Assembly (NCBI RefSeq): GCF_002848005.1
Contig: NZ_PKHX01000006.1
Location: 12,396 to 76,395 of the forward strand
Direction: 5' to 3'
DNA from: Varibaculum cambriense
GTDB taxonomy: Bacteria > Actinomycetota > Actinomycetes > Actinomycetales > Actinomycetaceae
Length of the DNA: 64,000 bases
Shown here one piece after another: positions 49,702-64,000 of the stretch. Each line of letters opens with the position of its first letter. Within the stretch, counting starts at the first letter, position 1. A program made the position numbers and the translations under genes. The notes beneath the pieces are model-generated. The model worked only from the letters and a program-made list of their open reading frames with translations. It was not told the origin of the DNA and did no database searches.

Positions 49702-49965
49702 TTAGAAGTCACCATAATGGGTTCCACACTGGACTATTCGCAACACCTCGCCATCGATCTTGAAAACCAGACGATTTTTTTCATCGATGCGAGCGCTCCA
49801 GTATCCAGAAAGATCTCCCCGCAAAGGTTCAGGTTTACCTATGCATTTGTACCCGTTACGGTCAATTGACTGTATTAGCTTCAATATTCGTCTCACAGTT
49901 TTCTTGTCTTGGTTCAACCAATACTGAAATTCTTCCCAAGAATAATCTGTCCAAGCCTTAATCAC
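49702..49965 (-). CDS. YoeB/Txe-family toxin
   Basis: An 87-residue YoeB-type mRNA interferase: [30 protein letters not shown] at the N-terminus, [24 protein letters not shown] in the core and the intact QCGTHYGDF end with the catalytic His-Tyr. Its start overlaps the antitoxin gene by 8 bp. YoeB is usually paired with a YefM/Phd-type antitoxin, but the antitoxin here is of the DinJ/RelB type. Confidence 0.92.
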
Positions 49966-50215
49966 CGGGCAGAACCTCGTGAATGGTACCGCCAGTTTGT
50001 TCCATTTGGGCTATTGAACTGCGCAAACGCTTCATATTTGATTCTGAATAGAACGGATCAATAGCCACCTCGAACGGGATCCGCTTCTCCCGCACCACCT
50101 TTGCTGCAAACATGGTGTAGGCGCTGGTAGCTGTAAGCCCCAGTTCTTTACACGTGGCTTCAAGAGATTTTTTCAAACTAGCATCCATCCGAAAATTGAC
50201 AGTTGCTTGCGCCAC
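49958..50215 (-). CDS. RelB/DinJ-type antitoxin of the YoeB-like toxin
   Basis: An 85-residue ribbon-helix-helix antitoxin, (M)AQATVNFRMDASLKKSLEAT..., with LGLTATSAYTMFAAKVVREK and the RIPFEV element of the DinJ/RelB family. The GTG at 50215 is chosen because AAAGGG is spaced about 8 bp upstream, whereas the GTG at 50224 sits directly on it. The C-terminal ~25 residues (NMKRLRSSIAQMEQTGGTIH) should bind the toxin. The pairing with a YoeB toxin is a mixed combination. Confidence 0.85.
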   Translation of the reverse strand: MAQATVNFRMDASLKKSLEATCKELGLTATSAYTMFAAKVVREKRIPFEVAIDPFYSESNMKRLRSSIAQMEQTGGTIHEVLPGD

Positions 50216-50353
50216 TTTAACCACCCTTTAAATACAAATCTCGACTTCTGAAGTACACATTACAGCTTTTGCAACACAAATGGAATACTTTTTTACATTT
50301 TGCACTCAACTGCCGTCACTTTCACCAGCCTGAGACCCCCACTTACATAGGCT

Positions 50354-51499: not shown

Positions 51500-52405
51500 C
51501 TATCCTTCAGCCTCTTCTTCATGGTCGCCAGTGGGTACTACTAGCACCGGGCAGGCTGCATGCGCCAAGATCGATTGCGAGGTGGAACCCATTAGCGCTC
51601 CCGCGAATCCTCCGCCTCCGCGGGTACCTACCACCACCAGGTCAACGGCGGTGGAAAATTCCGTCAGCAACGCCGCCGGATTGCCGTCTAGGGCGTGAGA
51701 ATGTACTTTCACCCCGCTATCAGCGGTTTCTTCCTTACAAGTTTGTTTAAGTTTGTCACGCACATCCCGCAAGATACTGTCGCGGTCGACCGTTGCCGGT
51801 AACCAGGACAAAATCCCGGCGGATGAGGCCAGGGGAACCGCATCCACGGCGGTCAATTCTGCGCCCCAAACTTGGGCTTCTTTGATAGAGCGGCGCAAGG
51901 ATTTGCGGGAACGGGTGGAACCGTCAAATCCAATCACGATTTTCTTTACGGGAACGAATTGGTCATCCGCGCCCCGCCGCGGCACCACTACTACTGGACA
52001 GTGAGAATAGGCAGGTAGCGCCGAGGAGGTCGCTCCCAGCAACCGGTCAGTGAACCCGCCGCCTCCGCGGGTACCGACCACAATCAAATCAACTTCCTGC
52101 GACAGTTGCACCAAAATCGCGGTGGGATCACCGGCCTCCACCCGCCCTTCGGCCTGATAGCCTAGTTTTTTGAGATGGGCGATAGCTTCGTCAACTACGG
52201 TTTGCGCGCTTTCACGAATCGCATCATTGTCTACTACCGCGAATCCGGAATCCATCGAGGCTGCCGTATAAGAGGGCAGGGCGTAGGCACATAATACTTG
52301 CAGCTTGCTGCCGCTTTGTTGGGCGCGCGCACCCGCCCATTCAGCGGCCTCTAAAGATTCCGGGGAGCCGTCAACGCCCACTAAAATAGTTTCTTTTCCC
52401 GACAT
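51500..52405 (-). CDS. Universal stress protein, tandem UspA domains
   Basis: A 301-residue protein with two UspA domains. Each carries an ATP-binding loop: VGTRGGGGFTDRLLGATSS-ALPAYSHCPVVVVP in the first half and VGTRGGGGFAGALMGSTSQS in the second. N-terminal ILVGVDGSPESLEAAEWA is typical. Tandem Usp proteins are common in actinobacteria and respond to stress or hypoxia; no regulatory signal was identified here. Not clearly part of the pilus operon, 117 bp away. Confidence 0.93.
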   Translation of the reverse strand: MSGKETILVGVDGSPESLEAAEWAGARAQQSGSKLQVLCAYALPSYTAASMDSGFAVVDNDAIRESAQTVVDEAIAHLKKLGYQAEGRVEAGDPTAILVQLSQEVDLIVVGTRGGGGFTDRLLGATSSALPAYSHCPVVVVPRRGADDQFVPVKKIVIGFDGSTRSRKSLRRSIKEAQVWGAELTAVDAVPLASSAGILSWLPATVDRDSILRDVRDKLKQTCKEETADSGVKVHSHALDGNPAALLTEFSTAVDLVVVGTRGGGGFAGALMGSTSQSILAHAACPVLVVPTGDHEEEAEG

Positions 52406-52522: not shown

Positions 52523-53563
52523 TCAGATTAAACTTTTATCTTTATCCTGAGGAGACGCCTGGTCGCTTTTTGCGTTGGTTTTGCCAGCCCGGTGCACGCG
52601 AGAGGACGTGTGTGATTGCCTGGAATGGCGTGATCCTTTACGTTTACGCGATCCTCGGAACTTCTTTGCTCTTTCCGCCCGGGTTAACCTGCCTACCCAC
52701 GCCAGATTTTCTGCTTCCTCCGGGGTATCTTCTTCATCGTCTTTTTTACGGCCTTTTCGCAGGTACCGCGCCACGATGGTGCCTCCCACTGCGGAAATAA
52801 GGATCGGGAGGATCATCCACCAGCGCAACGCATCCCACCAAGTGGGGCCTTCTTCGTTCATCGGGGGCGCCGCCTTGAGGGCGATACGTTCCGCGGTAAC
52901 CACCAGGCGGTGGGTGTTAGTGCCGTAGGGGGTGCAGGTAAATAGGGTCAGAATATCTTTGCCCGGTACTGGTTGGAATAACTCTAACTGGGTGGGTTTA
53001 ATGACGTGGATAGCGCGGACTTTATACGCGAGCTTTTTTCCCGCCACCTGCACATAAGCAATATCACCGACTTTGACATCGTGCAGCCCGTCAAACAAAC
53101 TGGCGGTTCTCATCCCCGAATGAGCTGTGAGGACGGCGTTTACTCCTTTACCGCCAACTGGTAGCCCGGTGCCGAAAAGATGCCCGGCACCACGGGCAAT
53201 CGCGTCATCTTCGGTGCCGTGCCGCACCGGTAGGTCTATTTTTGCGGATGGCACCACTAGTCGCGCCATTACGTCTCCAGGGAGAGTCGCTAAGTATTCT
53301 TGATATTCTTCCGACCCGGTTTTAGTCATCTGGTAGAGGTAGGGGTCGAGAATGGGAATGCCGCGGATATTGTGGTTATATTCGTGTGCCGCTTTCAGCA
53401 GCGCCTGAGACTGATCGGGATGGGCAGACATCTGCTTCATTTCTTGCGCTTGCATGCGCGAAATTTCCCCAATACGCACATTGCCAATAAAAATAGCGAC
53501 TACCGGATACAGCAGTAGCAAGGCTCCCACTGCCGTCAAAATGATGATCAAAGTTTTTCGCAC
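52523..53563 (-). CDS. Class C sortase (pilin polymerase)
   Basis: A 346-residue sortase C. N-terminal transmembrane helix (about 5-28), the lid motif ILDPYL (residues 71-76), catalytic His148 in TAHSG, Cys210 in LFTCTPYG and Arg219 in THRLVV. A second transmembrane segment (about 247-267) is followed by an unusually long, very basic cytoplasmic tail of ~75 residues. It should join pilin subunits through the LPLTG motif and a pilin-motif lysine. It is third in the pilus gene order, 294 bp downstream of the pilin gene and separated from it by a strong hairpin. Confidence 0.93.
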   Translation of the reverse strand: MRKTLIIILTAVGALLLLYPVVAIFIGNVRIGEISRMQAQEMKQMSAHPDQSQALLKAAHEYNHNIRGIPILDPYLYQMTKTGSEEYQEYLATLPGDVMARLVVPSAKIDLPVRHGTEDDAIARGAGHLFGTGLPVGGKGVNAVLTAHSGMRTASLFDGLHDVKVGDIAYVQVAGKKLAYKVRAIHVIKPTQLELFQPVPGKDILTLFTCTPYGTNTHRLVVTAERIALKAAPPMNEEGPTWWDALRWWMILPILISAVGGTIVARYLRKGRKKDDEEDTPEEAENLAWVGRLTRAERAKKFRGSRKRKGSRHSRQSHTSSRVHRAGKTNAKSDQASPQDKDKSLI

Positions 53564-53766: not shown

Positions 53767-53808
53767 CAAAGAGGGGGCGATGCATCCAGCTGCACCGCCC
53801 CCTCTTTG
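53767..53808 (-). terminator. Strong stem-loop between pilin and sortase genes
   Basis: CAAAGAGGGGGCG (53767-53779) and CGCCCCCTCTTTG (53796-53808) form a 13-bp perfect stem, 50 bp past the pilin stop. No long U-tract follows on the minus strand. It may act as a partial terminator or 3' stabiliser that keeps pilin mRNA above sortase mRNA. Confidence 0.75.
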
Positions 53809-53857: not shown

Positions 53858-55414
53858 CTAGTCCTTACGGCGTTTAACGGTTAGTACCACGCCGATAGAG
53901 ACCAGAATCAAGCCCAGAGCCGAAAGGAGCAGAATCCCCTGCGCACCAGTCAGCGGCAGCCCCGGGTTCTTGTGGTTGGTAATATCAAGAGCGTTACCAG
54001 CTTTAGCTTTAGCAGCAGCACTCAAATCGGTAACCGTTCCCGGCTTAGTAAGCGAGAACTTAATAGCTTGCGGCAGGATCTGGTAACCAGCTGGAGCCTG
54101 TTCCTCAACCAGGCAGTAGGGTACCTGGTCCGTTTCCGGCACCGCTTCCCCATCAATCCAGTCAGTCATCTGCAAATCAGAGATTTTTGCTAGACCATCT
54201 GCCTTAGTCTCATTTGAGGTCTTGATAGTCGGGCCATAGCTGGAGCAATCTTTCTTGTCCGAGGTATCCAGGTGGACACTGAATATAGCGCCAGCCAGAG
54301 TCTCGCCCGCGCTGTTGACCTTCTTAATTACGATATCGCCGTGCTTGGTAACAACCTCCGGAGAATTGACCGGCTTACCATTGTCTTTTGCCCACTTATT
54401 CGGGTACAACTGACCAGTGTTCTTGGTCAAACCATCAGCCGGAACGCTCTTTAACTTAACGTGTAGAGTAACCTCGATCTTGGCGCCACCAGCGATAGTG
54501 TCCAGACCAGTACCTTTGAAGGCGACGGTGATCTTGTTACCATCGGCAGTGGCATCAAAATCTTTGGTATCTTTATCAGCAATCTTGGCGGTAGTCTTTA
54601 CATACTCCACGTTGGCCGGAAGTTGGTCGACAATCTGGTATAGATTACCCAGGTCAGCGGCATCCATCTTTCCATCGCCATTGGCGTCAGCGCCCGTGGA
54701 AGTGGTGGTCAAGACATACTTAAACTCATCCATACCGGTTGTAGACCCCGGTTTCTCAGTGGTAACGCCCTTGTCTTGAACCTTCTTATCCAGTTCGTTT
54801 TCCTGGTTCTTGGGGTAGACGTGTACGTCGCTATTCCAGGCCTTACCATCGGGATTGGTCATCGGCAAAGTAACTGCGAAGGGAGCAATCGGAGTGATTT
54901 TTTCCTTCTTAACCTCTTTACCAGCAGCCTTAATCGTGCCCGATCCGGCTAGGTCCTCTACCACGACGTACAGACCACGATCTACGGAAGTGAACTTAGC
55001 TTCCCCATTAGTGCCAGTTGTCATAGTCGTCGGGTTAGCGGCCAGCTTGTAAGTGGTAGCTCCAACTGTGATCCCGGTGGTGACTACATCGTCCTTCAAA
55101 GAAACTTCCCCAATTTCTTGAGCCAGTTTCAGACCGTCATTGGTAGAAACGTCAACGCCCTCAACCTTGTAGAGCTTAAAATTAACCCCTTCCAAAGGTG
55201 TTTTACCGGTAAGCTCGGCAGCGTCAATCGCGGTACCATCGTGTTTCAAATTCGTAGTCGCACCCAGATACTTATGCACCGTCAAAGATGCGGTAGTGGG
55301 CTGCGATGCACCCGGGGTAAACGTAGTATTAGCACTGGCGGCGCCGACGCCTGCCAGGCCCATAAAGGCCATCACCATGCCGGTTAGCACGGCTAATAAC
55401 TTTTTCTTACTCAC
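53858..55414 (-). CDS. LPLTG-anchored major pilin (FimA/SpaD type)
   Basis: A 518-residue shaft pilin. Signal peptide MSKKKLLAVLTGMVMAFMGL-AGVGAASA (about 1-29), an N-terminal pilin domain, the pilin motif WNSDVHVYPKNQ with the linking Lys202, a C-terminal Cna-B-like domain with E-box YCLVEEQAPAGY, then LPLTG (486-490), a hydrophobic helix and KRRKD. Two cysteines (KDCSSY, PYCLV) suggest a disulfide. The GTG start at 55412-55414 follows GGAAGAG and overlaps the adhesin stop by 8 bp. Order adhesin-pilin-sortase matches Actinomyces fim loci. Confidence 0.93.
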   Translation of the reverse strand: MSKKKLLAVLTGMVMAFMGLAGVGAASANTTFTPGASQPTTASLTVHKYLGATTNLKHDGTAIDAAELTGKTPLEGVNFKLYKVEGVDVSTNDGLKLAQEIGEVSLKDDVVTTGITVGATTYKLAANPTTMTTGTNGEAKFTSVDRGLYVVVEDLAGSGTIKAAGKEVKKEKITPIAPFAVTLPMTNPDGKAWNSDVHVYPKNQENELDKKVQDKGVTTEKPGSTTGMDEFKYVLTTTSTGADANGDGKMDAADLGNLYQIVDQLPANVEYVKTTAKIADKDTKDFDATADGNKITVAFKGTGLDTIAGGAKIEVTLHVKLKSVPADGLTKNTGQLYPNKWAKDNGKPVNSPEVVTKHGDIVIKKVNSAGETLAGAIFSVHLDTSDKKDCSSYGPTIKTSNETKADGLAKISDLQMTDWIDGEAVPETDQVPYCLVEEQAPAGYQILPQAIKFSLTKPGTVTDLSAAAKAKAGNALDITNHKNPGLPLTGAQGILLLSALGLILVSIGVVLTVKRRKD

Positions 55415-58400
55415 TTCTCTTCCTTTCAAATAGAGTGACTACAATAGCAATCCCTAATGCCAGGCACCCTAGAAGTAACACTTCTAAAGCACCGGCGTAT
55501 CCCGACAAGGGAAGTTTCCCTTCCGGGTAGTTAGTGACAGTCAGGGATCCATTCCCGCCACTAACGGTATTTACATTTCCTTTTCCACTGATAATGGTCA
55601 CGTTCCCGCTACCGTCTACCGTGAAGTTCACCGGCTGCGGCAATAGGGCGTAACCCCTGCTGGTTTGGGTTTCCTTTAAGGTGTAGTTTTGTCCAGGTAT
55701 CACCTTGAACTTAACTTTCCCGTTCTTATCAGTAGTCAAAGTCTGAGCAGCTCCGCTCGCACCCTCCTCAGAGAGTTCGAAGACCACGCCCTCAATCGCA
55801 GTACCGGTATCGGAGACTTTATTAAGCTCCACCTCGGTCTCGGATAGCTCGTTATAGCGCTTGAAAGTTATCACCGGGTTATCCGCGGTCAGGGAAATTG
55901 GCTCCACTGCATTGGAAATTAGATACCCATCCGGAGGCTTAGACTCCCGAAGCTCATAATCGTGACCAAAAGGTAAGCCAGTAAATGTAGCCAAACCCAC
56001 CTCGTTAGTAGTCAAAGACCTTTCGGTATTATCCGTTTTGTCCTTAAGCGTAAACTCCGCACCCGCCAACGGTTTACCGGTTTCTTTCGATAGTTTCGAA
56101 ACCGTAATCCTGCCGGTGTCCTTAGTGTTGGGCACCTCCATAGTGATCAGCCCGGTAAACCCATCTAGCAGGGCGTAATCGGATACTTTCACTGAAATCG
56201 CATTGGACTTAGCGATATAACCACCGCTAGGAGCTTGAATTTCCTTCAGCTTATAGATCTTGTCCGGATCCAGCTTCACGTTTGCCGGCAGGTTAACCAA
56301 ACCGTCACTACCAGTAACCAGGTTGGTAGCCACTTCCGTGGTCTCGTCCTCGTTAAAGAGGGTGAACTTGGCGCCCGAAAGGGGAATCACCACATCGAAA
56401 GTACCCGCCACTTGACCGGGGACTTTCACCGCACCCGGGGTACCCGACACCACTTTATCGGCAGCGTCCTCACCAATTGCCTTCACCAGGGGTTCGAACT
56501 TGAAGACCCGCAGACGCGAACGATTGTTATTAGCCGTCCAGGTAAACTGCTGCATCTTATAGTCATCAACCACGAACTCGTACTGAGCCCGGGGATCGAT
56601 GTAATACCCGGCAGGAGCCTTTAGCTCTTTCACCCGGTAAATACCACCAGAAAGACCAGTGAACTCTGCTTGCCCGGTCTGCTCAGTGGTTACCTTCTTG
56701 ATCGGTTCGGTTGGCCAAGAACCATCGCCGGCCTGCTTGAATAGGCCGAACTCGGCGCCCTTTAGGTTGCGGTTAGTAGCAGCAGCCTGCGGGTCAACCT
56801 TGGTGACTATCAGTGAAGACTCTTTCTTTTCTTTCTCGTTAGGCACCAGTAGCTCGTCCTGCTCTAGCAACAGATTCCCAGAAGCGTCCTTGAGTTTGCC
56901 AGCAGCATCAATCTGGAACTGCAACAGGGCATCGTTCTTGATATATCCGGCAGGAGCGAAGGTCTCTTTCAAGGTATAAACCTGGTCTAGATCCAGCCCG
57001 TCTAAAATGACGTTCATCTGCCCATCGCTGGCGGTGGTGACCGTCTTCACCCGATTGGTAGCACTGTCCGTAGTTCCTTTATATAGTTCGAAGGTTGCGC
57101 CACCTTTAATCACCCCGTCACTGCGTTTCCACTGGCCAAAGGATTTATTCTTACCGGCCATGCCCCGCACGCCTAGCTTCGATAGCGACACCGCGCCTTT
57201 ATCGTTAAAAATCAGGCCAAGATCCCCGAAGCCGAACGTCAAATTCAATCCGCGCAGGACGCAGTCGCTCCCTGAACAATTAGTAATCGTAAAGTCAATC
57301 GGAGCAATCGGCTGCAGGTGACGATCACCTGGATTCTCCGTTAACCGCCATTTACCGGCAGGAATGTTGTAGAACTTCACGTCACCGTCATCATTAGAGC
57401 GCACCGTAATCGGAGCCGAGTTCGGCACAAACATGGTGCCGTCATTTTGCTGCACCGGCTGGGGAGTAATCGTGAAGGCTATACCCGCTAAAGGCTGACC
57501 GTTCTTATCCACCTTCTTAAACTCGGCAGTACCCCGAATCGGCTCGACTGGATACCATTTGCCCATGTTGGTAACATCAGGCGCTTTAATCCGGTAGGTT
57601 CCGGTAGCAGAATCAAAATTAGTCGCGTTAAAGTCGGTGGCGGACAACATATATGCCTTATCGGTAACGGCATATCCCGTGGGAGCTTCGATCTCTCGCA
57701 CCGTCCACCCCGGGGCGGCATTCACATTCGTAAACTTGACTTTGCCGTTAGAGTCAGAGATGGCGGTGGCTTGGAGTTCGCCCTCTTTGTCGTAGAGGCC
57801 GAATTTGGCTCCTGCGAGCAGTTTCTTCTGCGCTGTTTGGAAGGGCTCAGCTTTATATCCGTACTTTGTCAGCTCGATATTTGTCGCTGGCGGCACCAAA
57901 GTGTTAATCACCGGATTGGATTCCAGTTTGCCTTCGTGCGAACTAGACACGCTCCAGAAATCATTGATTGCCTTCTTACCCAAATGCTCTTGGGAAAGCG
58001 GAGTCGCGCCCTTGGGGCCGGCAATCATCGGTACCGTAATCCGCACTTCGCTGCGCGGCTTTTGCGGGCTGGTATTGGTGAATTTCAACCCCGTTACCGC
58101 CTGGCAGGGTGCGCTCTGCCAGTTGGCGCGATCCAGGTCATATTTCGTCGCCATACCGGTATCGCAGGTATAGAAGGTATTCCAACCGTTAGCAGCCGTT
58201 CCATCAGCCATTTCGAAGCTGATTCGCCCGCTGGAATCGTACTGGTTAATCAGGGTGGAACCTTTGCGGGCAGGAGTACCTGCCACCGGCAGTAAGTCAT
58301 AGATTACCGGATTTTGCTCCGGGTTAGTTCCGTAGCCTAACCGCAGCTGATAATCGAATTTTGCTCCCCCGACAGTGCTAATCTCGGTAACCCAAGGGGT

Positions 58401-61400
58401 GTTTGGCTTACGCTCCCGAATCCGCTTAGTTATGTAGGTTTCGTCCCCTACTGCGACTCTGGTGGTATTTTCCGCTCTCGACCACACTCCCGAACCCGCA
58501 ATCGGGTTGGTTACCCTGGTTACCCATCTGTCTTTCTCTCTGTCGCTTTTATCTTCTGGGTACTCAACATTGCCTTGAGCATGCACGAACGCTTCGTTAA
58601 TGATGTCACCGTCGATAACACCCCTGGTGATAACGGTCTGCAGTTGACCCACACTGTAAACCTGGTTCGGATCCGTAACCTGGTCAGCTTGGAAACGAAC
58701 CGCTACGCGTCCTGTCCCATTGAAGTTAGAAAGGATCTGGTAACGAGCACCGGGCAGTTCCGCAAACTTTTTAGTCAGCGTCACCCGGTTAACTTCCAAC
58801 CCCCTAGGTAGCACATCTACCAGCTCAAAAGCGGTCAGAGGATCACCGTAATCGGTTTCTAGCTCGGCACCCACGGTATAGGTACCGGTTTTACCGGCGA
58901 TAGTTGCCTTGGCAAAAGTATTCACTTTACGAGCTTTAAGCTTCTTGCCCTCGGGCAATACCTTGACATGAGCCTCTTTAATACGTTCTCCGCCCTGTAC
59001 CTTATTTCTGAGGTCGGCTTGGCACTTCAGCCCCTCACAGAGTTTCTGATCCGGGTCACGGAGCTTGGTGTGAATCCGGGTAATAGTTCTTTCCCTCGGC
59101 TGCGTTTCCTTAACGCTGCTCCACCGCAACTGGATGTTCTCGTAGGAGGTAAGGTTCTCCGGCAGGTCGATCCGGTCAGTTCCCGTAATGCCCATGGAAT
59201 ACAGAACTTTATATTTACCCGGTTCACCCGTGGGGCTAATAATCTCTAGGGTGCCCCCTACAAATACCGGATCAGGAGTGATCGCGGTGTACTGTAAACG
59301 GTCATCAAGGTCGAAGTCCCTAAGATTTAGGGTGACAGCGGTATCCGTAGTGTTATTGGTAAGTACGTTCCAATTGAATTCAGGAATACGATCCTGCTTA
59401 GTGTCGTAGATTACCGCGACTCCATCACGGATATGGGGACCGGCAGCAACCTTCGTTAGCGGCACCCCGGGGGGTGCAGTCTCCATCGGCTTATAGAAGC
59501 TAAAGTGAGTGTTCGCCGCCCCCGTAATTAGCGGTTCCTTCGGACCTTGCTCCTCGGGGGTGAGGGTAAATTCCGCGGTGTTATCAATCCGTTTTTGTTT
59601 CTTTGCCCCCGGGAAATGCAACTTCAAGCTACCTAGACCGGAGCTCTCCGTGGTCAGACGTTTTTCGGTATTGGTGTAGGTGAGGGTGACCTGATCGTCA
59701 CCTAGCTTCCACCCCGGGTTTTCAGAGGCTACGAACTTGGCACGTGCCTGGGTACCATCAGTCTTGATGTATAGCGGCAACTGGTCGGTGATGGTGTAAC
59801 CCCGCACGTTCCGCATCAATTTCTCTACTGCGAAAGTAAAGGTGACCGCGTTATTTCCGTATCTGCTTACGTGCCCTTCTGGATCATCATCGTAGTCCCT
59901 ACATACGCCAAGATCACATCCAACTGTATCCTTCGTGAAAGTAGGCAGCGGATAGTAGCCTTTAAGGTTCACCGGTCCCGGTTTAGATTTTGGATGCGGG
60001 GTAAGCACATACCGATTCCCGTCCGAGGCTTTATCTAGCAATTCGGCCTTAAGCGGGAAAACCGCGTCCGAGGCGGTAATCCGCTTCTTTATACGCCAGT
60101 AGATAGGAATACTTGTTCGTATGGAGCTATCGTAATTCGGCTTCAGCTTAACTTCCAGGACTCCTGGGGCAACTACCTTAACTGATTGGAAGTATTGGCT
60201 GGAAGTATTATCCCAATCCGCAACTTCTACCCGGGTAGGATCATAAGTTACCCGAATGACCCCATCCTTAACTATCGAGGTTCCGGCATCCCCACCGTAG
60301 GCGAGGTCAACTCGCATATTATTGCCGAACTGCTCCTCTAGATCATTCGACTCGGGCCAGCCTGGCTGGTTTATTTTCCCGGTCAAATTCAAACGCGCGT
60401 AAAAACCCGTCAACTCGGCAGGAGCCTTCTGGTAACGGAAAACTATATTTTTGTCGTTGCCGTCCAGGTCAATCCATTGCGGTTGCGGCAGAGAGTATCC
60501 CTTGACCATCGGCGGCTGCAGCAAGTACTTATTTTCGCCATTGCTGTCTTTGGTGCTGATTACCCGGCTTTCGCTGGGAGCTACCGTCTCGCCGTTGGGG
60601 CCGAGGTATTGCACATTGACTTTATTGTCCACCAGGATGATAATCACCCCAGGTATACCCTCGATATTCAGGGGGTTCTTGCCTGATTCTGGCCGCAAGT
60701 AGATGGGGGCTTTAAGACCCACATAGGTGTCGAGGTATAAATCTTTCGCCCCAAGTATCCTTACCGCAAGATCTAAGCGGTTCCGGGGCGGCTTATACGT
60801 TGGATCGCCCGACGGATTACTCTGATCCACTGGGGTGTCAGGAACTGTAAATACCTGACCGGCGGGAACCGTTCCCCCAAAGGTATACTGTCCAAAATCA
60901 TTTATTTTCCCCAAAGAATTCGGAAGAGTAGTTATATTGTTCTTCCCTTTTTCTCGGTCTATTTCCTTGTTCTTGCTGAAACTGTCGGTTACATTCCCAA
61001 AAGTACCGGCGTAGTTCTCGCGCCCTCCATACATAGAGTAAATCCAGTAAGCACCTACAGACTCTACGTTTTCCCAGGAATCCGGGAGAGCTGTGAGAGC
61101 ATTGTTTACAAACGCCGAATATTTTATTGCTGTTACCGCACCCCAGGAAGCGGGTAACGCCTTTATCCGGTTCGATTCAAAAGCATGCCTATTGATGAGG
61201 GTGATCTTGCCCCAGGAGCTAGGGAGAGTAGTGATTTCATTATTGATGAATGCGCCTGTGGGAATTTCGGTGAAATTATCCCAGGGAGCCGTCAGGGCGG
61301 TAAGCTTATTGTCTTTGAAACTCTCCGCGCCAATGGTGGTAACGCTTCCCCACGAATCTGGCAGACCGGTGAGGGCATTACCCAAGAACGCCCGCCCTTT

Positions 61401-64000
61401 AATAGTTTTCACCTGTCCCCAGGAGTCCGGCAGCGCCTGTATCTGGTTATTATTAGCTGCGTTAGCATCGCCACCAGAGCAGCTAGGTAAATTGTCCGAG
61501 TTTACGTTGAAATACTTGTAGGTAGACTTACCTGCAAAAGCACATTCCCCAATAGTGGTCACGCTGTCCCATTGTGGAGGAAGCACCGTCAGGTTATTTC
61601 GCACGAAAGCGCTCTGACCAATAGTGGTGACCGCTCCCCAGGCGGGCAGCGCAGCCAGCTGGTTATCGTAGAAAGCCCGTTCCGGAATAGTAGTGATCTT
61701 TCCCCAGGAATCCGGCAAAGAAGTTAACAGGTTAGAAGCAAAACTACTCGTGTCTAGCCGAGACACGTTTTCCCAGGAATCTGGGAGTTTAACTAGCTTG
61801 TTTTTCTCAAATGCAGATTTCCCAATGGTGGTAACCGATCCCCAGGAATGCAGCGAGGTTATTTCGTTGTTCTTAAATGCAGATTCCCCAATGCTGGTAA
61901 TCGACCCCAGGGAATGCAGCGAGGTTATTTCGTTGTTCTCAAATACGTCCTTTGGCAGCCTAGTGAGCTTGCCCCAAGAGTCGGGTACGGCCTTAAGCTT
62001 ATTATCTTGAAAAGCCCCTACCCCCAGTTGCGATACATTCTCCCAAGACTCCGGCAATTCCGTTAACTGGTTATGCCTAAATACCTCTTGACCTACGCTG
62101 GTAATCGGACCCCAATCGGGCAGCGAGACTAGCTTGTTTTCCTTAAATGCATACCTGGGTAAAGTAGTAATTTTACCCCAGGAATTAGGCAAGGAGGTTA
62201 GCCCGCAATTATAAAAGGCTGTCTCTCCGATCTGAGAAACATTTCCCCAAGAATCTGGAAGCGCCGTCAGATTTGTGTTTGAGAAAAATGCCTCTTTGCC
62301 GATTGAGGTGATATTTTCCCAGGATTTTGGTAGTGATTGCAACTTATTCGCACCGAAAACCCCCTCATTGATCTCAGTGAGCAAGCCCCAAGAATCCGGA
62401 AGCCGGGTCAAGGCGCCACCTCTGAAAGCATTTTTCCCAATAGCTTTGACAGAACCCCAGGAATCTGGGATTTCACTCAGATTACTGTTTGCGTTAAAGG
62501 CTGATTCACCAATCGAGGTAACTTTGCCCCAAGACTTAGGAAGAGCCGTAAGTCGGGAACTTGCAAAGGCAGAATCGCCAATCTTAGAGACTTTGTCCCA
62601 TGATTTAGGCATCTCGGTGAAGCTGCTAGATGCAAACGCCCGGTTGCCGATGCTGGTGATAGAACCCCATGAATCCGGAATCCGGGACAGCGAAGGGTAC
62701 ATATCTGAAAAAGCATTATCGCCGATCGCGGTAATGGGTTGTCCCTTGTCCCCGAAAGTTGGCCAGCACCAGGGATCCTTGGTCTTCCCTGCCATATGCT
62801 TTTGATTACCGTCACGGCTGAACCCGCTAATGGTTCCCCCGTTGTAGGTGAAATCTTTTACCTGCCAACCTGCGCAAATGGTTTTCTCTGGCCAATCCGG
62901 ACCGACTGCCACCTTGCCTTTAACGGTTTTAGTGCGCCCCTGAGAATCAGTGACCGTGTAGTAGACATCGTAGGTGGCCTCTTGCACATTAGTATCAATT
63001 GTTTTCGGAGAAACCTTTAGCTTTTCAGTAATAACATTGCCGTAAGTATCTACCGCGGTCACATCCTTCAATAAAGCTTCTGTGGAACCGTCACCACGAT
63101 GCGGAATATGCTTATTAATCTCCCCGCTAATCTTGGGCGAAAAATCGGTTTTCTTATAGGTAAACGTAACCGCATTTTCCTCCCCGGACTTCGGGGTAAT
63201 CTTTTGGGAGGTCGGGGTCACCGCATAGCCAGCCAGGCGCGGTGCCTTAATAGTGTTTTCTTTGCCCGCGAAATAAACCCCGTCCGGTTCGGTGAACTCA
63301 CTTTGTAGCACCTGCTGGCTGCGCAGGGGCTTTTTTGTTTCTGCATCGACATATTTGATGGTAATCGAGACCGCGTCCTCCGCAGCCACCTGACCAAACC
63401 CGGAAGCATACTTTTCGGACTTTACTGCGGTCGGAAGCGGAGTATGCTCGTCCGCCTTTTCTAGCACGACCCAGCGCTTATTATTCGAAAAAACTTCCTT
63501 GCCAAAGGTGGTGATAGTCGCAGGAATCTTTACTTCTTTGATTTGGTTGCCGCTAAACGCTTCCTGACCCACCTTTTCGAGATTGGGCGGAAACGCGATT
63601 CCCGATAGCTGGTTATTTGCGAAGGCACTAGCGCCGATCTCGGTCACATACTTCGGCAGGGTGACCTCAGTTAGTTTATTGTCACGGAAGGCGTTCGCTG
63701 AAATAATGGTTAGCCGCTGGGGCGGGTTTTGCGGATCATCCGGGCGAGCGTCGGTGATATTCACCTTGGTTAACTGGTTATCGCTAAATGCGCCCTCGCC
63801 AATACTGATTATCGTATCCGAAGTGAAAGTAGTTAGCTGGTTCTTCTGGAACGCGCCCTCGCCAATAGTTTCTAGCCCCGGCGCCACCAGATCCGTAATC
63901 GAATTATCGTAAAAGGCGCGGTCGCCTACCTCTGTAACTGAAGCCGGCAGGGTGACCTTAGTGAGTTTCAGCCCCGAAAATACGTCCGCCGCAATCTTGG
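55407..64000 (-). CDS. Giant BspA-type LRR / SpaA-domain surface adhesin, LPLSG-anchored (partial)
   Basis: At least 2,863 residues are visible; the frame is open through the right edge, so the N-terminus and signal peptide lie outside. In order: BspA-type LRR_5 repeats (to about 63,430), a MucBP-like domain (KYVDAETKKPL), an Ig-like segment, about 24 repeats of 22-23 residues of the form LPDSWGxVTxIGxxAFxxNxLTx (about 62,760-60,870), a second MucBP-like unit, a long beta-rich region, seven SpaA/Cna-B domains with Lys starts and E-box ends (KEIQAPSGGY, KELKAPAGYY), then LPLSG, a hydrophobic helix and ERKRSE. Three CX4C pairs and one Cys-bearing insertion occur. Order suggests it is the pilus tip or accessory adhesin. 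Its stop overlaps the pilin start by 8 bp. Confidence 0.85.
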   Translation of the reverse strand, partial: KIAADVFSGLKLTKVTLPASVTEVGDRAFYDNSITDLVAPGLETIGEGAFQKNQLTTFTSDTIISIGEGAFSDNQLTKVNITDARPDDPQNPPQRLTIISANAFRDNKLTEVTLPKYVTEIGASAFANNQLSGIAFPPNLEKVGQEAFSGNQIKEVKIPATITTFGKEVFSNNKRWVVLEKADEHTPLPTAVKSEKYASGFGQVAAEDAVSITIKYVDAETKKPLRSQQVLQSEFTEPDGVYFAGKENTIKAPRLAGYAVTPTSQKITPKSGEENAVTFTYKKTDFSPKISGEINKHIPHRGDGSTEALLKDVTAVDTYGNVITEKLKVSPKTIDTNVQEATYDVYYTVTDSQGRTKTVKGKVAVGPDWPEKTICAGWQVKDFTYNGGTISGFSRDGNQKHMAGKTKDPWCWPTFGDKGQPITAIGDNAFSDMYPSLSRIPDSWGSITSIGNRAFASSSFTEMPKSWDKVSKIGDSAFASSRLTALPKSWGKVTSIGESAFNANSNLSEIPDSWGSVKAIGKNAFRGGALTRLPDSWGLLTEINEGVFGANKLQSLPKSWENITSIGKEAFFSNTNLTALPDSWGNVSQIGETAFYNCGLTSLPNSWGKITTLPRYAFKENKLVSLPDWGPITSVGQEVFRHNQLTELPESWENVSQLGVGAFQDNKLKAVPDSWGKLTRLPKDVFENNEITSLHSLGSITSIGESAFKNNEITSLHSWGSVTTIGKSAFEKNKLVKLPDSWENVSRLDTSSFASNLLTSLPDSWGKITTIPERAFYDNQLAALPAWGAVTTIGQSAFVRNNLTVLPPQWDSVTTIGECAFAGKSTYKYFNVNSDNLPSCSGGDANAANNNQIQALPDSWGQVKTIKGRAFLGNALTGLPDSWGSVTTIGAESFKDNKLTALTAPWDNFTEIPTGAFINNEITTLPSSWGKITLINRHAFESNRIKALPASWGAVTAIKYSAFVNNALTALPDSWENVESVGAYWIYSMYGGRENYAGTFGNVTDSFSKNKEIDREKGKNNITTLPNSLGKINDFGQYTFGGTVPAGQVFTVPDTPVDQSNPSGDPTYKPPRNRLDLAVRILGAKDLYLDTYVGLKAPIYLRPESGKNPLNIEGIPGVIIILVDNKVNVQYLGPNGETVAPSESRVISTKDSNGENKYLLQPPMVKGYSLPQPQWIDLDGNDKNIVFRYQKAPAELTGFYARLNLTGKINQPGWPESNDLEEQFGNNMRVDLAYGGDAGTSIVKDGVIRVTYDPTRVEVADWDNTSSQYFQSVKVVAPGVLEVKLKPNYDSSIRTSIPIYWRIKKRITASDAVFPLKAELLDKASDGNRYVLTPHPKSKPGPVNLKGYYPLPTFTKDTVGCDLGVCRDYDDDPEGHVSRYGNNAVTFTFAVEKLMRNVRGYTITDQLPLYIKTDGTQARAKFVASENPGWKLGDDQVTLTYTNTEKRLTTESSGLGSLKLHFPGAKKQKRIDNTAEFTLTPEEQGPKEPLITGAANTHFSFYKPMETAPPGVPLTKVAAGPHIRDGVAVIYDTKQDRIPEFNWNVLTNNTTDTAVTLNLRDFDLDDRLQYTAITPDPVFVGGTLEIISPTGEPGKYKVLYSMGITGTDRIDLPENLTSYENIQLRWSSVKETQPRERTITRIHTKLRDPDQKLCEGLKCQADLRNKVQGGERIKEAHVKVLPEGKKLKARKVNTFAKATIAGKTGTYTVGAELETDYGDPLTAFELVDVLPRGLEVNRVTLTKKFAELPGARYQILSNFNGTGRVAVRFQADQVTDPNQVYSVGQLQTVITRGVIDGDIINEAFVHAQGNVEYPEDKSDREKDRWVTRVTNPIAGSGVWSRAENTTRVAVGDETYITKRIRERKPNTPWVTEISTVGGAKFDYQLRLGYGTNPEQNPVIYDLLPVAGTPARKGSTLINQYDSSGRISFEMADGTAANGWNTFYTCDTGMATKYDLDRANWQSAPCQAVTGLKFTNTSPQKPRSEVRITVPMIAGPKGATPLSQEHLGKKAINDFWSVSSSHEGKLESNPVINTLVPPATNIELTKYGYKAEPFQTAQKKLLAGAKFGLYDKEGELQATAISDSNGKVKFTNVNAAPGWTVREIEAPTGYAVTDKAYMLSATDFNATNFDSATGTYRIKAPDVTNMGKWYPVEPIRGTAEFKKVDKNGQPLAGIAFTITPQPVQQNDGTMFVPNSAPITVRSNDDGDVKFYNIPAGKWRLTENPGDRHLQPIAPIDFTITNCSGSDCVLRGLNLTFGFGDLGLIFNDKGAVSLSKLGVRGMAGKNKSFGQWKRSDGVIKGGATFELYKGTTDSATNRVKTVTTASDGQMNVILDGLDLDQVYTLKETFAPAGYIKNDALLQFQIDAAGKLKDASGNLLLEQDELLVPNEKEKKESSLIVTKVDPQAAATNRNLKGAEFGLFKQAGDGSWPTEPIKKVTTEQTGQAEFTGLSGGIYRVKELKAPAGYYIDPRAQYEFVVDDYKMQQFTWTANNNRSRLRVFKFEPLVKAIGEDAADKVVSGTPGAVKVPGQVAGTFDVVIPLSGAKFTLFNEDETTEVATNLVTGSDGLVNLPANVKLDPDKIYKLKEIQAPSGGYIAKSNAISVKVSDYALLDGFTGLITMEVPNTKDTGRITVSKLSKETGKPLAGAEFTLKDKTDNTERSLTTNEVGLATFTGLPFGHDYELRESKPPDGYLISNAVEPISLTADNPVITFKRYNELSETEVELNKVSDTGTAIEGVVFELSEEGASGAAQTLTTDKNGKVKFKVIPGQNYTLKETQTSRGYALLPQPVNFTVDGSGNVTIISGKGNVNTVSGGNGSLTVTNYPEGKLPLSGYAGALEVLLLGCLALGIAIVVTLFERKRSE

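What the first reader, a model, noticed from the sequence alone, without database searches (positions are those of the whole stretch)
55407..64000. Very large fused LRR-and-SpaA adhesin as the probable pilus tip
BspA-type LRRs are typical of oral and vaginal anaerobe and protozoan surface proteins; SpaA repeats belong to Gram-positive pilins. Joining two LRR blocks, MucBP-like domains and seven SpaA domains in one >2,860-residue LPLSG protein, directly upstream of a shaft pilin and sortase C, is an unusual architecture. The SWG-containing repeat variant is distinctive and may define a subfamily with its own ligand. Its position suggests display at the tip of a pilus or along its length.
Basis: partly seen in the sequence, partly recalled or inferred. 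Interest (0 to 1): 0.7.

Follow-up and report, generated by a model that had tools for sequence, protein, structure and literature searches.

The report
Giant pilus-tip adhesin with swappable LRR
This is a genus-wide, roughly 3,000-residue surface protein of Varibaculum that most likely sits at the tip of a cell-surface pilus, and whose leucine-rich-repeat binding part has been exchanged between species by recombination while other parts of the gene stayed similar.

Summary
55407-63998 (-) encodes 2,863 residues of a ~3,005-residue secreted protein: BspA-type LRR block, weak MucBP and Ig-like matches, second LRR block of ~23-residue LPDSWG repeats, ~850-residue beta-sandwich stalk, seven SpaA domains, LPLSG anchor. 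A shaft pilin (with the operon's only pilin motif) and sortase C follow. It is no assembly artefact: 6 of 6 Varibaculum genomes have it. Relatives occur in Propionimicrobium lymphophilum and in an Arcanobacterium MAG; in the MAG, shaft and sortase C are also neighbours. A pilus tip is the best reading, but inferred. Among 103 homologues it forms 25 classes at 80% identity, against 8 (LRR1), 6 (stalk) and 9 (SpaA). Two species genomes share an exact 4,173-bp stalk tract, yet their second LRR blocks are 61% identical. I read the gene as a tip adhesin whose binding module is exchanged between strains and species. Long G-runs lie near several Varibaculum pilus operons (post hoc count) and at two frame splits, hinting at phase variation. 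Each element has precedents; I found no description of the combination. Ligand unknown.

The parts
55407..63998 (-). Giant LRR/SpaA adhesin gene, 2,863 codons in the window, 5' end outside
63474..63998 (-). LRR block 1 (BspA type; residues 1-175 of the part in the window, limits approximate)
   Evidence: (LRR_5 94-173)
63153..63365 (-). MucBP-like domain (residues 212-282), weak match
   Evidence: E 0.0041, below cut-off
62904..63068 (-). Bacterial surface Ig-like domain (residues 311-365), weak match
   Evidence: E 3.5e-5 alone, 24.2 bits, cut-off 27
61029..62726 (-). LRR block 2, SWG repeats (residues ~425-990): the variable, recombining module
   Evidence: model m15499624432e
59949..60416 (-). 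Cohesin/CLIPPER-like beta-sandwich at the head of the stalk (residues ~1195-1350)
57891..58946 (-). Two domains of the stalk that resemble pilin CnaA-type beta-sandwiches (residues ~1685-1849 and 1851-2036; 'CnaA-type' recalled)
55590..57836 (-). Seven SpaA domains, matched residues 2055-2122, 2157-2223, 2300-2369, 2395-2488, 2539-2607, 2629-2716, 2722-2803
55500..55514 (-). LPLSG sorting motif, followed by YAGALEVLLLG
53858..55429 (-). Shaft pilin, SpaH/EbpB family, LPLTG; likely GTG start at 55414 overlapping the adhesin stop
54809..54838 (-). Pilin motif WNSDVHVYPK of the shaft pilin
53768..53807 (-). Hairpin (18 pairs) between shaft pilin and srtC
   Evidence: -36.5 kcal/mol, z -6.5; similar hairpin in 5 of 6 loci compared, window included
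52523..53563 (-). Class C (pilus) sortase
51500..52405 (-). UspA-like gene (name recalled); its stop is the downstream edge of the block shared by G001 and G005

Best explanation
The gene encodes the tip adhesin of a three-gene sortase-assembled pilus (adhesin, shaft, SrtC). Proposed steps: the protein is secreted; SrtC cleaves LPLSG and joins it to the pilin-motif lysine of the first shaft pilin; having no pilin motif, it stays terminal (all inferred). The SpaA domains and the beta-sandwich domains before them form a long stalk (folds shown by profile and model; stiffening bonds inferred). The two LRR blocks at the N-terminal end meet a ligand (inferred, ligand unknown). The second, SWG-type block exists in discrete allele classes that recombination has moved between strains and species on a more conserved scaffold (shown by sequence), which would change binding or antigenic identity without rebuilding the pilus (inferred).
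For: Operon order adhesin-shaft-srtC in the window, V. vaginae L001 and V. cambriense L003 and L006 and G005 and G006: 6 loci, all with the uspA-like gene downstream; adhesin stop and shaft start overlap. Pilin motif only in the shaft; absent from 103 of 103 full-length homologues. LPLSG in 100 of 103; 83 of 103 share LPLSGYAGALEVLLLG. Arcanobacterium MAG L046: shaft-like pilin, srtC and an SWG-LRR/SpaA giant side by side in another order. Present in 6 of 6 Varibaculum genomes. Mosaic: G005 v G006 exact match of 4,173 bp, stalk dS 0 over 829 codons, SWG dS 1.67, shaft 0.26, srtC 0.63; 810 of 5,253 homologue pairs have stalk identity of 97% or more, and their SWG identity is 57% at the 5th centile, 65% at the median and 96% at the 75th; triplet walk, window between G005 and G006: descent 241 v at most 90, ascent 213 v at most 73 in 2,000 shuffles.
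Against: No imaging, expression or binding data were available. The FLIAG motif that marks tip pilins in Actinomyces oris (PMC11389406, passages) is absent from 103 of 103 sorting signals. A second copy in V. vaginae (L005) has no shaft or sortase beside it, and second copies in G005 (L061) and G003 (L004) have a shaft but no sortase beside them, so the gene can live without the operon. In the first locus of G003 a 949-aa protein lies between shaft and srtC (L090). The shaft-like pilin of the MAG has no match to my pilin-motif pattern, and its adhesin shows no stalk match and only two partial ones. dN/dS in the SWG block is at most 0.32 where defined, so no positive selection is seen on average. 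Window v V. vaginae shows no SWG excess (dS 1.34 v 1.41 in the stalk). Stalk and SWG classes are linked (rho 0.70): only 1 of 25 SWG classes occurs with two stalk classes. The 103 mix first- and second-locus copies of several species.
Confidence: 0.72

Rival explanations
1. The protein is a wall-anchored fibrillar adhesin, attached directly by the housekeeping sortase, and its place next to the pilus genes is incidental or only regulatory.
For: It has its own stalk of some 1,600 residues; an orphan copy without a shaft or sortase exists (L005); no FLIAG motif.
Against: Adhesin-shaft-srtC order in 6 loci (and the window), overlapping reading frames, the same three functions linked in another order in an Arcanobacterium MAG, and a sorting signal that is among the most conserved parts of the protein.
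Confidence: 0.2
2. The mosaic pattern is a database artefact: chimeric contigs or contamination make alleles look recombined.
For: Most of the listed homologues have only lgn or ena as source, which I take to be mostly metagenome assemblies. G004 shows long poly-G stretches, several at contig ends.
Against: The clearest case rests on contigs of 2.28 and 2.21 Mb that hold nearly all of G005 and G006. G001 v G005 gives a 14.8-kb block at 98.6% within flanking pieces at 70 to 93%. SWG classes of 21, 15, 15, 10, 8, 7 and 6 members recur among separate clusters.
Confidence: 0.07
3. SWG diversity arises inside each gene by repeat slippage and unequal exchange between its own LRR repeats, with little transfer between strains.
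For: Repeat number differs between alleles, and tandem repeats invite slippage.
Against: For four pairs (window-G005, window-G004, G004-G005, G005-G006) SWG dS is 1.67 to 1.99 but stalk dS 0 to 0.49, which needs old alleles, not fresh slippage; window-G006 shows less (0.64 v 0.32) and window-G002 none (1.34 v 1.41). V. massiliense P0066 shares SWG at 85% with P0008, whose stalk is only 62% identical.
Confidence: 0.15

Closest known systems
Actinomyces oris fimbriae (FimQ-FimP-SrtC1; FimB or CafA on FimA-SrtC2)
   Same: Two-pilin, one-sortase actinobacterial pilus; a second tip pilin may be encoded away from the operon (CafA; PMC11389406, passages), as the orphan copy L005 might be.
   Different: No FLIAG motif; the tip carries LRR blocks and is about 3,000 residues.
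Corynebacterium diphtheriae SpaABC pili
   Same: Shaft pilin with a lysine in a pilin motif, pilus sortase, tip and base pilins without that motif (PMC11389406, passages).
   Different: No separate basal pilin beside this operon in the window; LRR tip.
BspA-type LRR proteins and LRR adhesin HupY/LrrG
   Same: LRR_5 repeats; NCBIfam HupY scores 225 bits.
   Different: Far below the HupY cut-off of 1250 bits; SWG repeats; pilus operon.
SHOC-2 and Leptospira LRR proteins (LIC11098) in the PDB
   Same: The SWG block matches them best in sequence (1.8e-36; 1.3e-32) and SHOC-2 first in fold.
   Different: Solenoid similarity only; no shared role implied.
Pneumococcal rlrA pilus islet
   Same: Recombination hotspots and mosaicism in a pilus operon (PMC2576445, abstract).
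   Different: There rrgA and rrgB show positive selection; here average dN/dS stays low and one LRR module is exchanged.
Bifidobacterium breve pilus G-tract switch
   Same: G-runs at pilus genes of an actinobacterium (PMC9187656, abstract).
   Different: Slippage is shown there; here only inferred from genome sequences.
Ester-bond giant adhesins of Mobiluncus and, putatively, Varibaculum cambriense
   Same: Very large adhesins of the same or a related genus (PMC10619420, passages).
   Different: Ig-like cross-linked repeats, not LRR plus SpaA.

Membership tests
Sortase-assembled pilus, tip pilin | Encoded with a shaft pilin and a class C sortase | tested here: met
   second copies are exceptions
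Sortase-assembled pilus, tip pilin | Cell-wall sorting signal | tested here: met
   LPLSG; of 103 homologues 100 have LPLSG, 2 LPLAG, 1 IPLSG
Sortase-assembled pilus, tip pilin | No pilin motif of its own | tested here: met
   YPK triplets in 20 of 103 homologues, seven looked at: six in the stalk, one in the SWG block, none in a pilin motif
Sortase-assembled pilus, tip pilin | Located at the pilus tip by microscopy | not testable with these tools
   none
A. oris-type tip signal | FLIAG next to the LPXTG motif | tested here: not met
   0 of 103
BspA-type LRR protein (Pfam LRR_5) | LRR_5 match over the cut-off | tested here: met
   297.5 bits v 27.7
HupY/LrrG adhesin (NF047961) | Score over the equivalog cut-off | tested here: not met
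   225 v 1250 bits
SpaH/EbpB major pilin (NF033902) | Score over the cut-off | tested here: not met
   adhesin 71.3 v 95 bits; the neighbouring shaft 276.3, met
Phase-variable gene | Run length varies within one strain and changes expression | not testable with these tools
   only different genomes compared

The most novel reading that the evidence does not exclude
Varibaculum pili carry a serotype-like, interchangeable LRR receptor module: SWG-LRR alleles circulate between species of this human-associated genus by homologous recombination on a common tip scaffold, and G-runs at the pilus genes switch the tips on and off, together giving a two-layer system (which binder, and whether it is displayed).
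Probability: 0.4. Interest if true: 0.68.

Novelty: new variant of a known kind. Interest (0 to 1): 0.5.

Why it matters
Varibaculum cambriense is associated with bacterial vaginosis (PMC10619420, passage), and in the papers I could search its attachment is almost undescribed (listings, and passages of PMC10619420). A pilus tip whose LRR module is exchanged between species on a shared scaffold would explain strain differences in binding or immune recognition, offers a natural set of 25 LRR classes for finding ligands, and makes the module's role directly testable.

Tried and rejected
Fusion artefact of assembly: rejected, because the architecture is intact on the 2.2 to 2.3-Mb contigs of G005 and G006 and the gene is present in 6 of 6 Varibaculum genomes.

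Unique architecture: rejected. Of 296 stored proteins 120 have at least three [LIV]PxSWG and two E-boxes by my motif test, 9 of them outside the first list; others join LRR_5, SpaA and an anchor without SWG.

Positive selection on SWG: not seen as an average (dN/dS 0.16 to 0.32 in the eight of nine pairs where it is defined); site-wise tests were not run.

G-run enrichment inside the adhesin by composition: not shown. A first-order shuffle expects 0.67 runs of eight or more G or C per gene. Only the genome-wide count of runs of nine or more near pilus sortases is notable; I counted it by eye from the coordinates, and the 12-kb limit was chosen after seeing the data. G004 was left out because of poly-G artefacts. 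Comparison operons L092 and L093 have no run of eight or more; the run of L094 is at a contig end.

The stalk's Foldseek matches over long stretches (integrin legs, macroglobulins, antigen I/II; query TM-scores 0.11 to 0.15 in the rows shown) say little; only single-domain matches are used. A PDB sequence search with the stalk found nothing at E up to 1.

Wider spread of the stalk region: 19 of 213 genomes of the family at E 0.001, of which six Varibaculum and G078 nearly full length and G079 in two pieces; 2 of 396 sampled genomes of the order (G004 itself and G078) and 1 of 396 of the phylum (G004 itself) at 1e-10.

Rows dropped: of 334 homologues 120 were listed; 17 of these, 2,700 aa or shorter, were left out of the 103.

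In one search the start marker was not found for G002, so its stretch carried about 10 kb of extra upstream DNA into the alignment; the profile is read on window positions.

Full report
What is there. The minus strand from 63998 to 55407 is one open frame of 2,863 residues that runs off the window. Its cluster representative P0001 has 3,005 residues, so about 142 residues with the signal peptide lie outside. Pfam finds LRR_5 (9.6e-90, 6 stretches) and SpaA (4.1e-99, 7 stretches); seven C-terminal segments searched one by one each give one SpaA domain. The first MucBP-like stretch and the Ig-like domain are below their cut-offs, and the second MucBP-like stretch is not recognised. The second LRR block consists of ~23-residue repeats; twenty are listed. 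Over 1,764 homologue repeats that were selected for P, S, W and F at fixed places, the other conserved positions are hydrophobic residues, G, A and N. In sequence the block is closest to SHOC-2 and Leptospira LRR proteins among solved structures; its AlphaFold model (11 sequences, mean pLDDT 83, pTM 0.76) matches SHOC-2 first.

The operon. The adhesin stop overlaps the start of a shaft pilin (SpaH/EbpB family, 276 bits) with pilin motif WNSDVHVYPK and LPLTG; a class C sortase follows. Between shaft and srtC lies an 18-pair hairpin (-36.5 kcal/mol, z -6.5), similar in 5 of 6 loci compared, the window included; L006 is the exception. The order adhesin-shaft-srtC recurs in V. vaginae L001, V. cambriense L003 and L006, G005 and G006, with the uspA-like gene downstream in all six. 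In the first locus of G003 a 949-aa protein with LPLSG lies between shaft and srtC (L090). In the Arcanobacterium MAG (L046, G079; name) the order is shaft-srtC-adhesin, another arrangement that argues for a functional link; its pilin matches the window shaft at 82 bits but not my pilin-motif pattern, and its stalk is hardly similar.

Why a tip. In C. diphtheriae the shaft pilin SpaA, unlike SpaB and SpaC, carries the pilin motif (PMC11389406, passages). The adhesin has none, nor has any of 103 full-length homologues; 20 of 103 contain the triplet YPK, and in the seven looked at it lies in the stalk (six) or the SWG block (one). Its sorting signal is highly conserved (83 of 103 with the same 16 residues). 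Against: the FLIAG motif needed in A. oris is absent in 103 of 103. Second copies exist in three of six genomes: with a shaft but no adjacent sortase in G005 and G003, alone in V. vaginae (L005). By analogy with A. oris CafA these could be alternative tips, which is untested.

The variable module. Apart from the low-complexity linker at P0001 residues 51-100, identity is lowest in the SWG block and the link after it (pairs). For the 103 homologues over 2,700 aa among the 120 listed of 334, which mix loci and species, average-linkage classes at 80% (gaps counted as differences) number 25 for SWG, 11 for the link, 8 for LRR1, 7 for MucBP-Ig, 6 for the stalk and 9 for SpaA. SWG identity hardly follows LRR1 or MucBP-Ig identity (rho 0.13, 0.14), follows SpaA weakly (0.35), and follows link (0.84) and stalk (0.70). 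So the unit that varies is SWG plus link, often with stalk, between more uniform ends. Within the three large stalk classes there are 7, 6 and 8 SWG classes. One SWG class occurs with two stalk classes; the odd member is V. massiliense P0066 (SWG 85%, stalk 62% to P0008).

Direct evidence of exchange. G005 and G006 are genomes of separate species in a one-per-species collection; the locus lies on contigs of 2.28 and 2.21 Mb. They share an exact 4,173-bp match covering stalk and part of SpaA, while flanking BLAST pieces over 700 bp are at 73 to 89% identity and the SWG block differs at 25 to 50% of sites. dS is 0 over 829 stalk codons, 1.67 in SWG, 0.26 in the shaft and 0.63 in srtC. G001 (V. 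cambriense DSM 15806) and G005 share a 14.8-kb block at 98.6%, ending at the uspA-like stop, in flanking pieces at 70 to 93%. The window's own gene is mosaic too: 0.7 to 4.7% from G005 near 55,883-55,283 but 15 to 25% in the 1.2 kb upstream; 7 to 22% from G006 in the first half of SWG but 32 to 44% in the second half and link. In a triplet walk the window switches between G005-like and G006-like more than in any of 2,000 shuffles (descent 241 v at most 90; ascent 213 v at most 73). Of the four other triplets, G006 between G005 and window gave 223 v 19 and 732 v 566, G004 between G005 and window 79 v 59 and 143 v 138, window between G002 and G006 1490 v 1483 and 46 v 12, and window between G004 and G006 812 v 813 (no excess) and 30 v 18. 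Genome-wide divergence was not measured; the background is the 48 to 50 kb compared and the secA-metK region, where the window is 94% identical to G005, 93% to G001, 90% to G002 and G004, 89% to G006 and 85 to 88% to G003.

Possible switching. Runs of nine or more G number 55 in G001, G002, G003, G005 and G006. By my reading of the coordinates, 8 of 55 lie within 12 kb upstream of one of 12 class C sortase genes, where about 0.75 are expected (binomial 8e-7; limits chosen afterwards). Two more lie at the second adhesin of G003, one inside the gene and one about 208 bp upstream of the start used; G006 has one inside and one about 218 bp upstream of its adhesin, both within the 8. In four other pilus operons a run of 8 to 11 lies at or just before the start of the large tip-like gene (L086, L087, L088, L091), in one before a pilin (L089); L092 and L093 have none. 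The frame splits of the adhesin in DSM 15806 (L003) and in L004 lie at G-runs; intact copies exist in other genomes. In Bifidobacterium breve such tracts switch pili (PMC9187656, abstract). The window gene has no G or C run of eight or more, and its upstream part is off the window.

Known and new. Searches (listings) showed no description of this Varibaculum pilus or its exchange; the library lacks most subscription journals. Mosaic pilus operons (PMC2576445, abstract) and putative ester-bond adhesins in V. cambriense (PMC10619420, passages) are known. PMC9210967 (passages) treats fibrillar adhesins at large; the passages did not mention this one. I file it as a new variant of sortase-assembled pili, not a new kind.

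Noticed in passing
L086 14674, L087 6511, L088 13804, L089 8268, L091 13710, L063 14249 and 14792: Runs of 8 to 11 G or C at or just before the start of pilus tip-like or pilin genes in several Varibaculum pilus operons, the two in L063 in and before the adhesin itself; possible phase variation like that of bifidobacterial pili.
   Followed up: partly
window 53768-53807: Strong 18-pair hairpin between shaft pilin and srtC with a varying loop in relatives; no run of T follows, so perhaps an attenuator or mRNA-stabilising element rather than a clear terminator.
   Followed up: partly
L005, L061, L004: Second adhesin copies: alone in V. vaginae, with a shaft but no neighbouring sortase in G005 and G003; might be alternative tips.
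   Followed up: partly
P0183, P0184, P0204, P0280: SWG-type LRR repeats joined to PF00092 (vWA, name recalled) and, in three of the four, PF18957 in unnamed proteins (P0183, P0184 and P0204 with six LPxSWG each): another architecture with the same repeat.
   Followed up: no
L004 and L002: The record titled Tissierella sp. Marseille-P2918 carries these adhesins and pilus genes; one search places its genome (G003) in the genus of G004, so the title is probably wrong.
   Followed up: partly
window 49702-50224: Small pair of genes that looks like a toxin-antitoxin module of the RelB/YoeB kind beside metK (recalled from reading the translation; no family search made).
   Followed up: no
L087, L088, L091, L093: Another pilus operon downstream of fusA-tuf-like genes (names recalled) with a 2,245 to 2,344-residue tip-like protein with an LPXTG-like anchor and no SWG repeats.
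   Followed up: no
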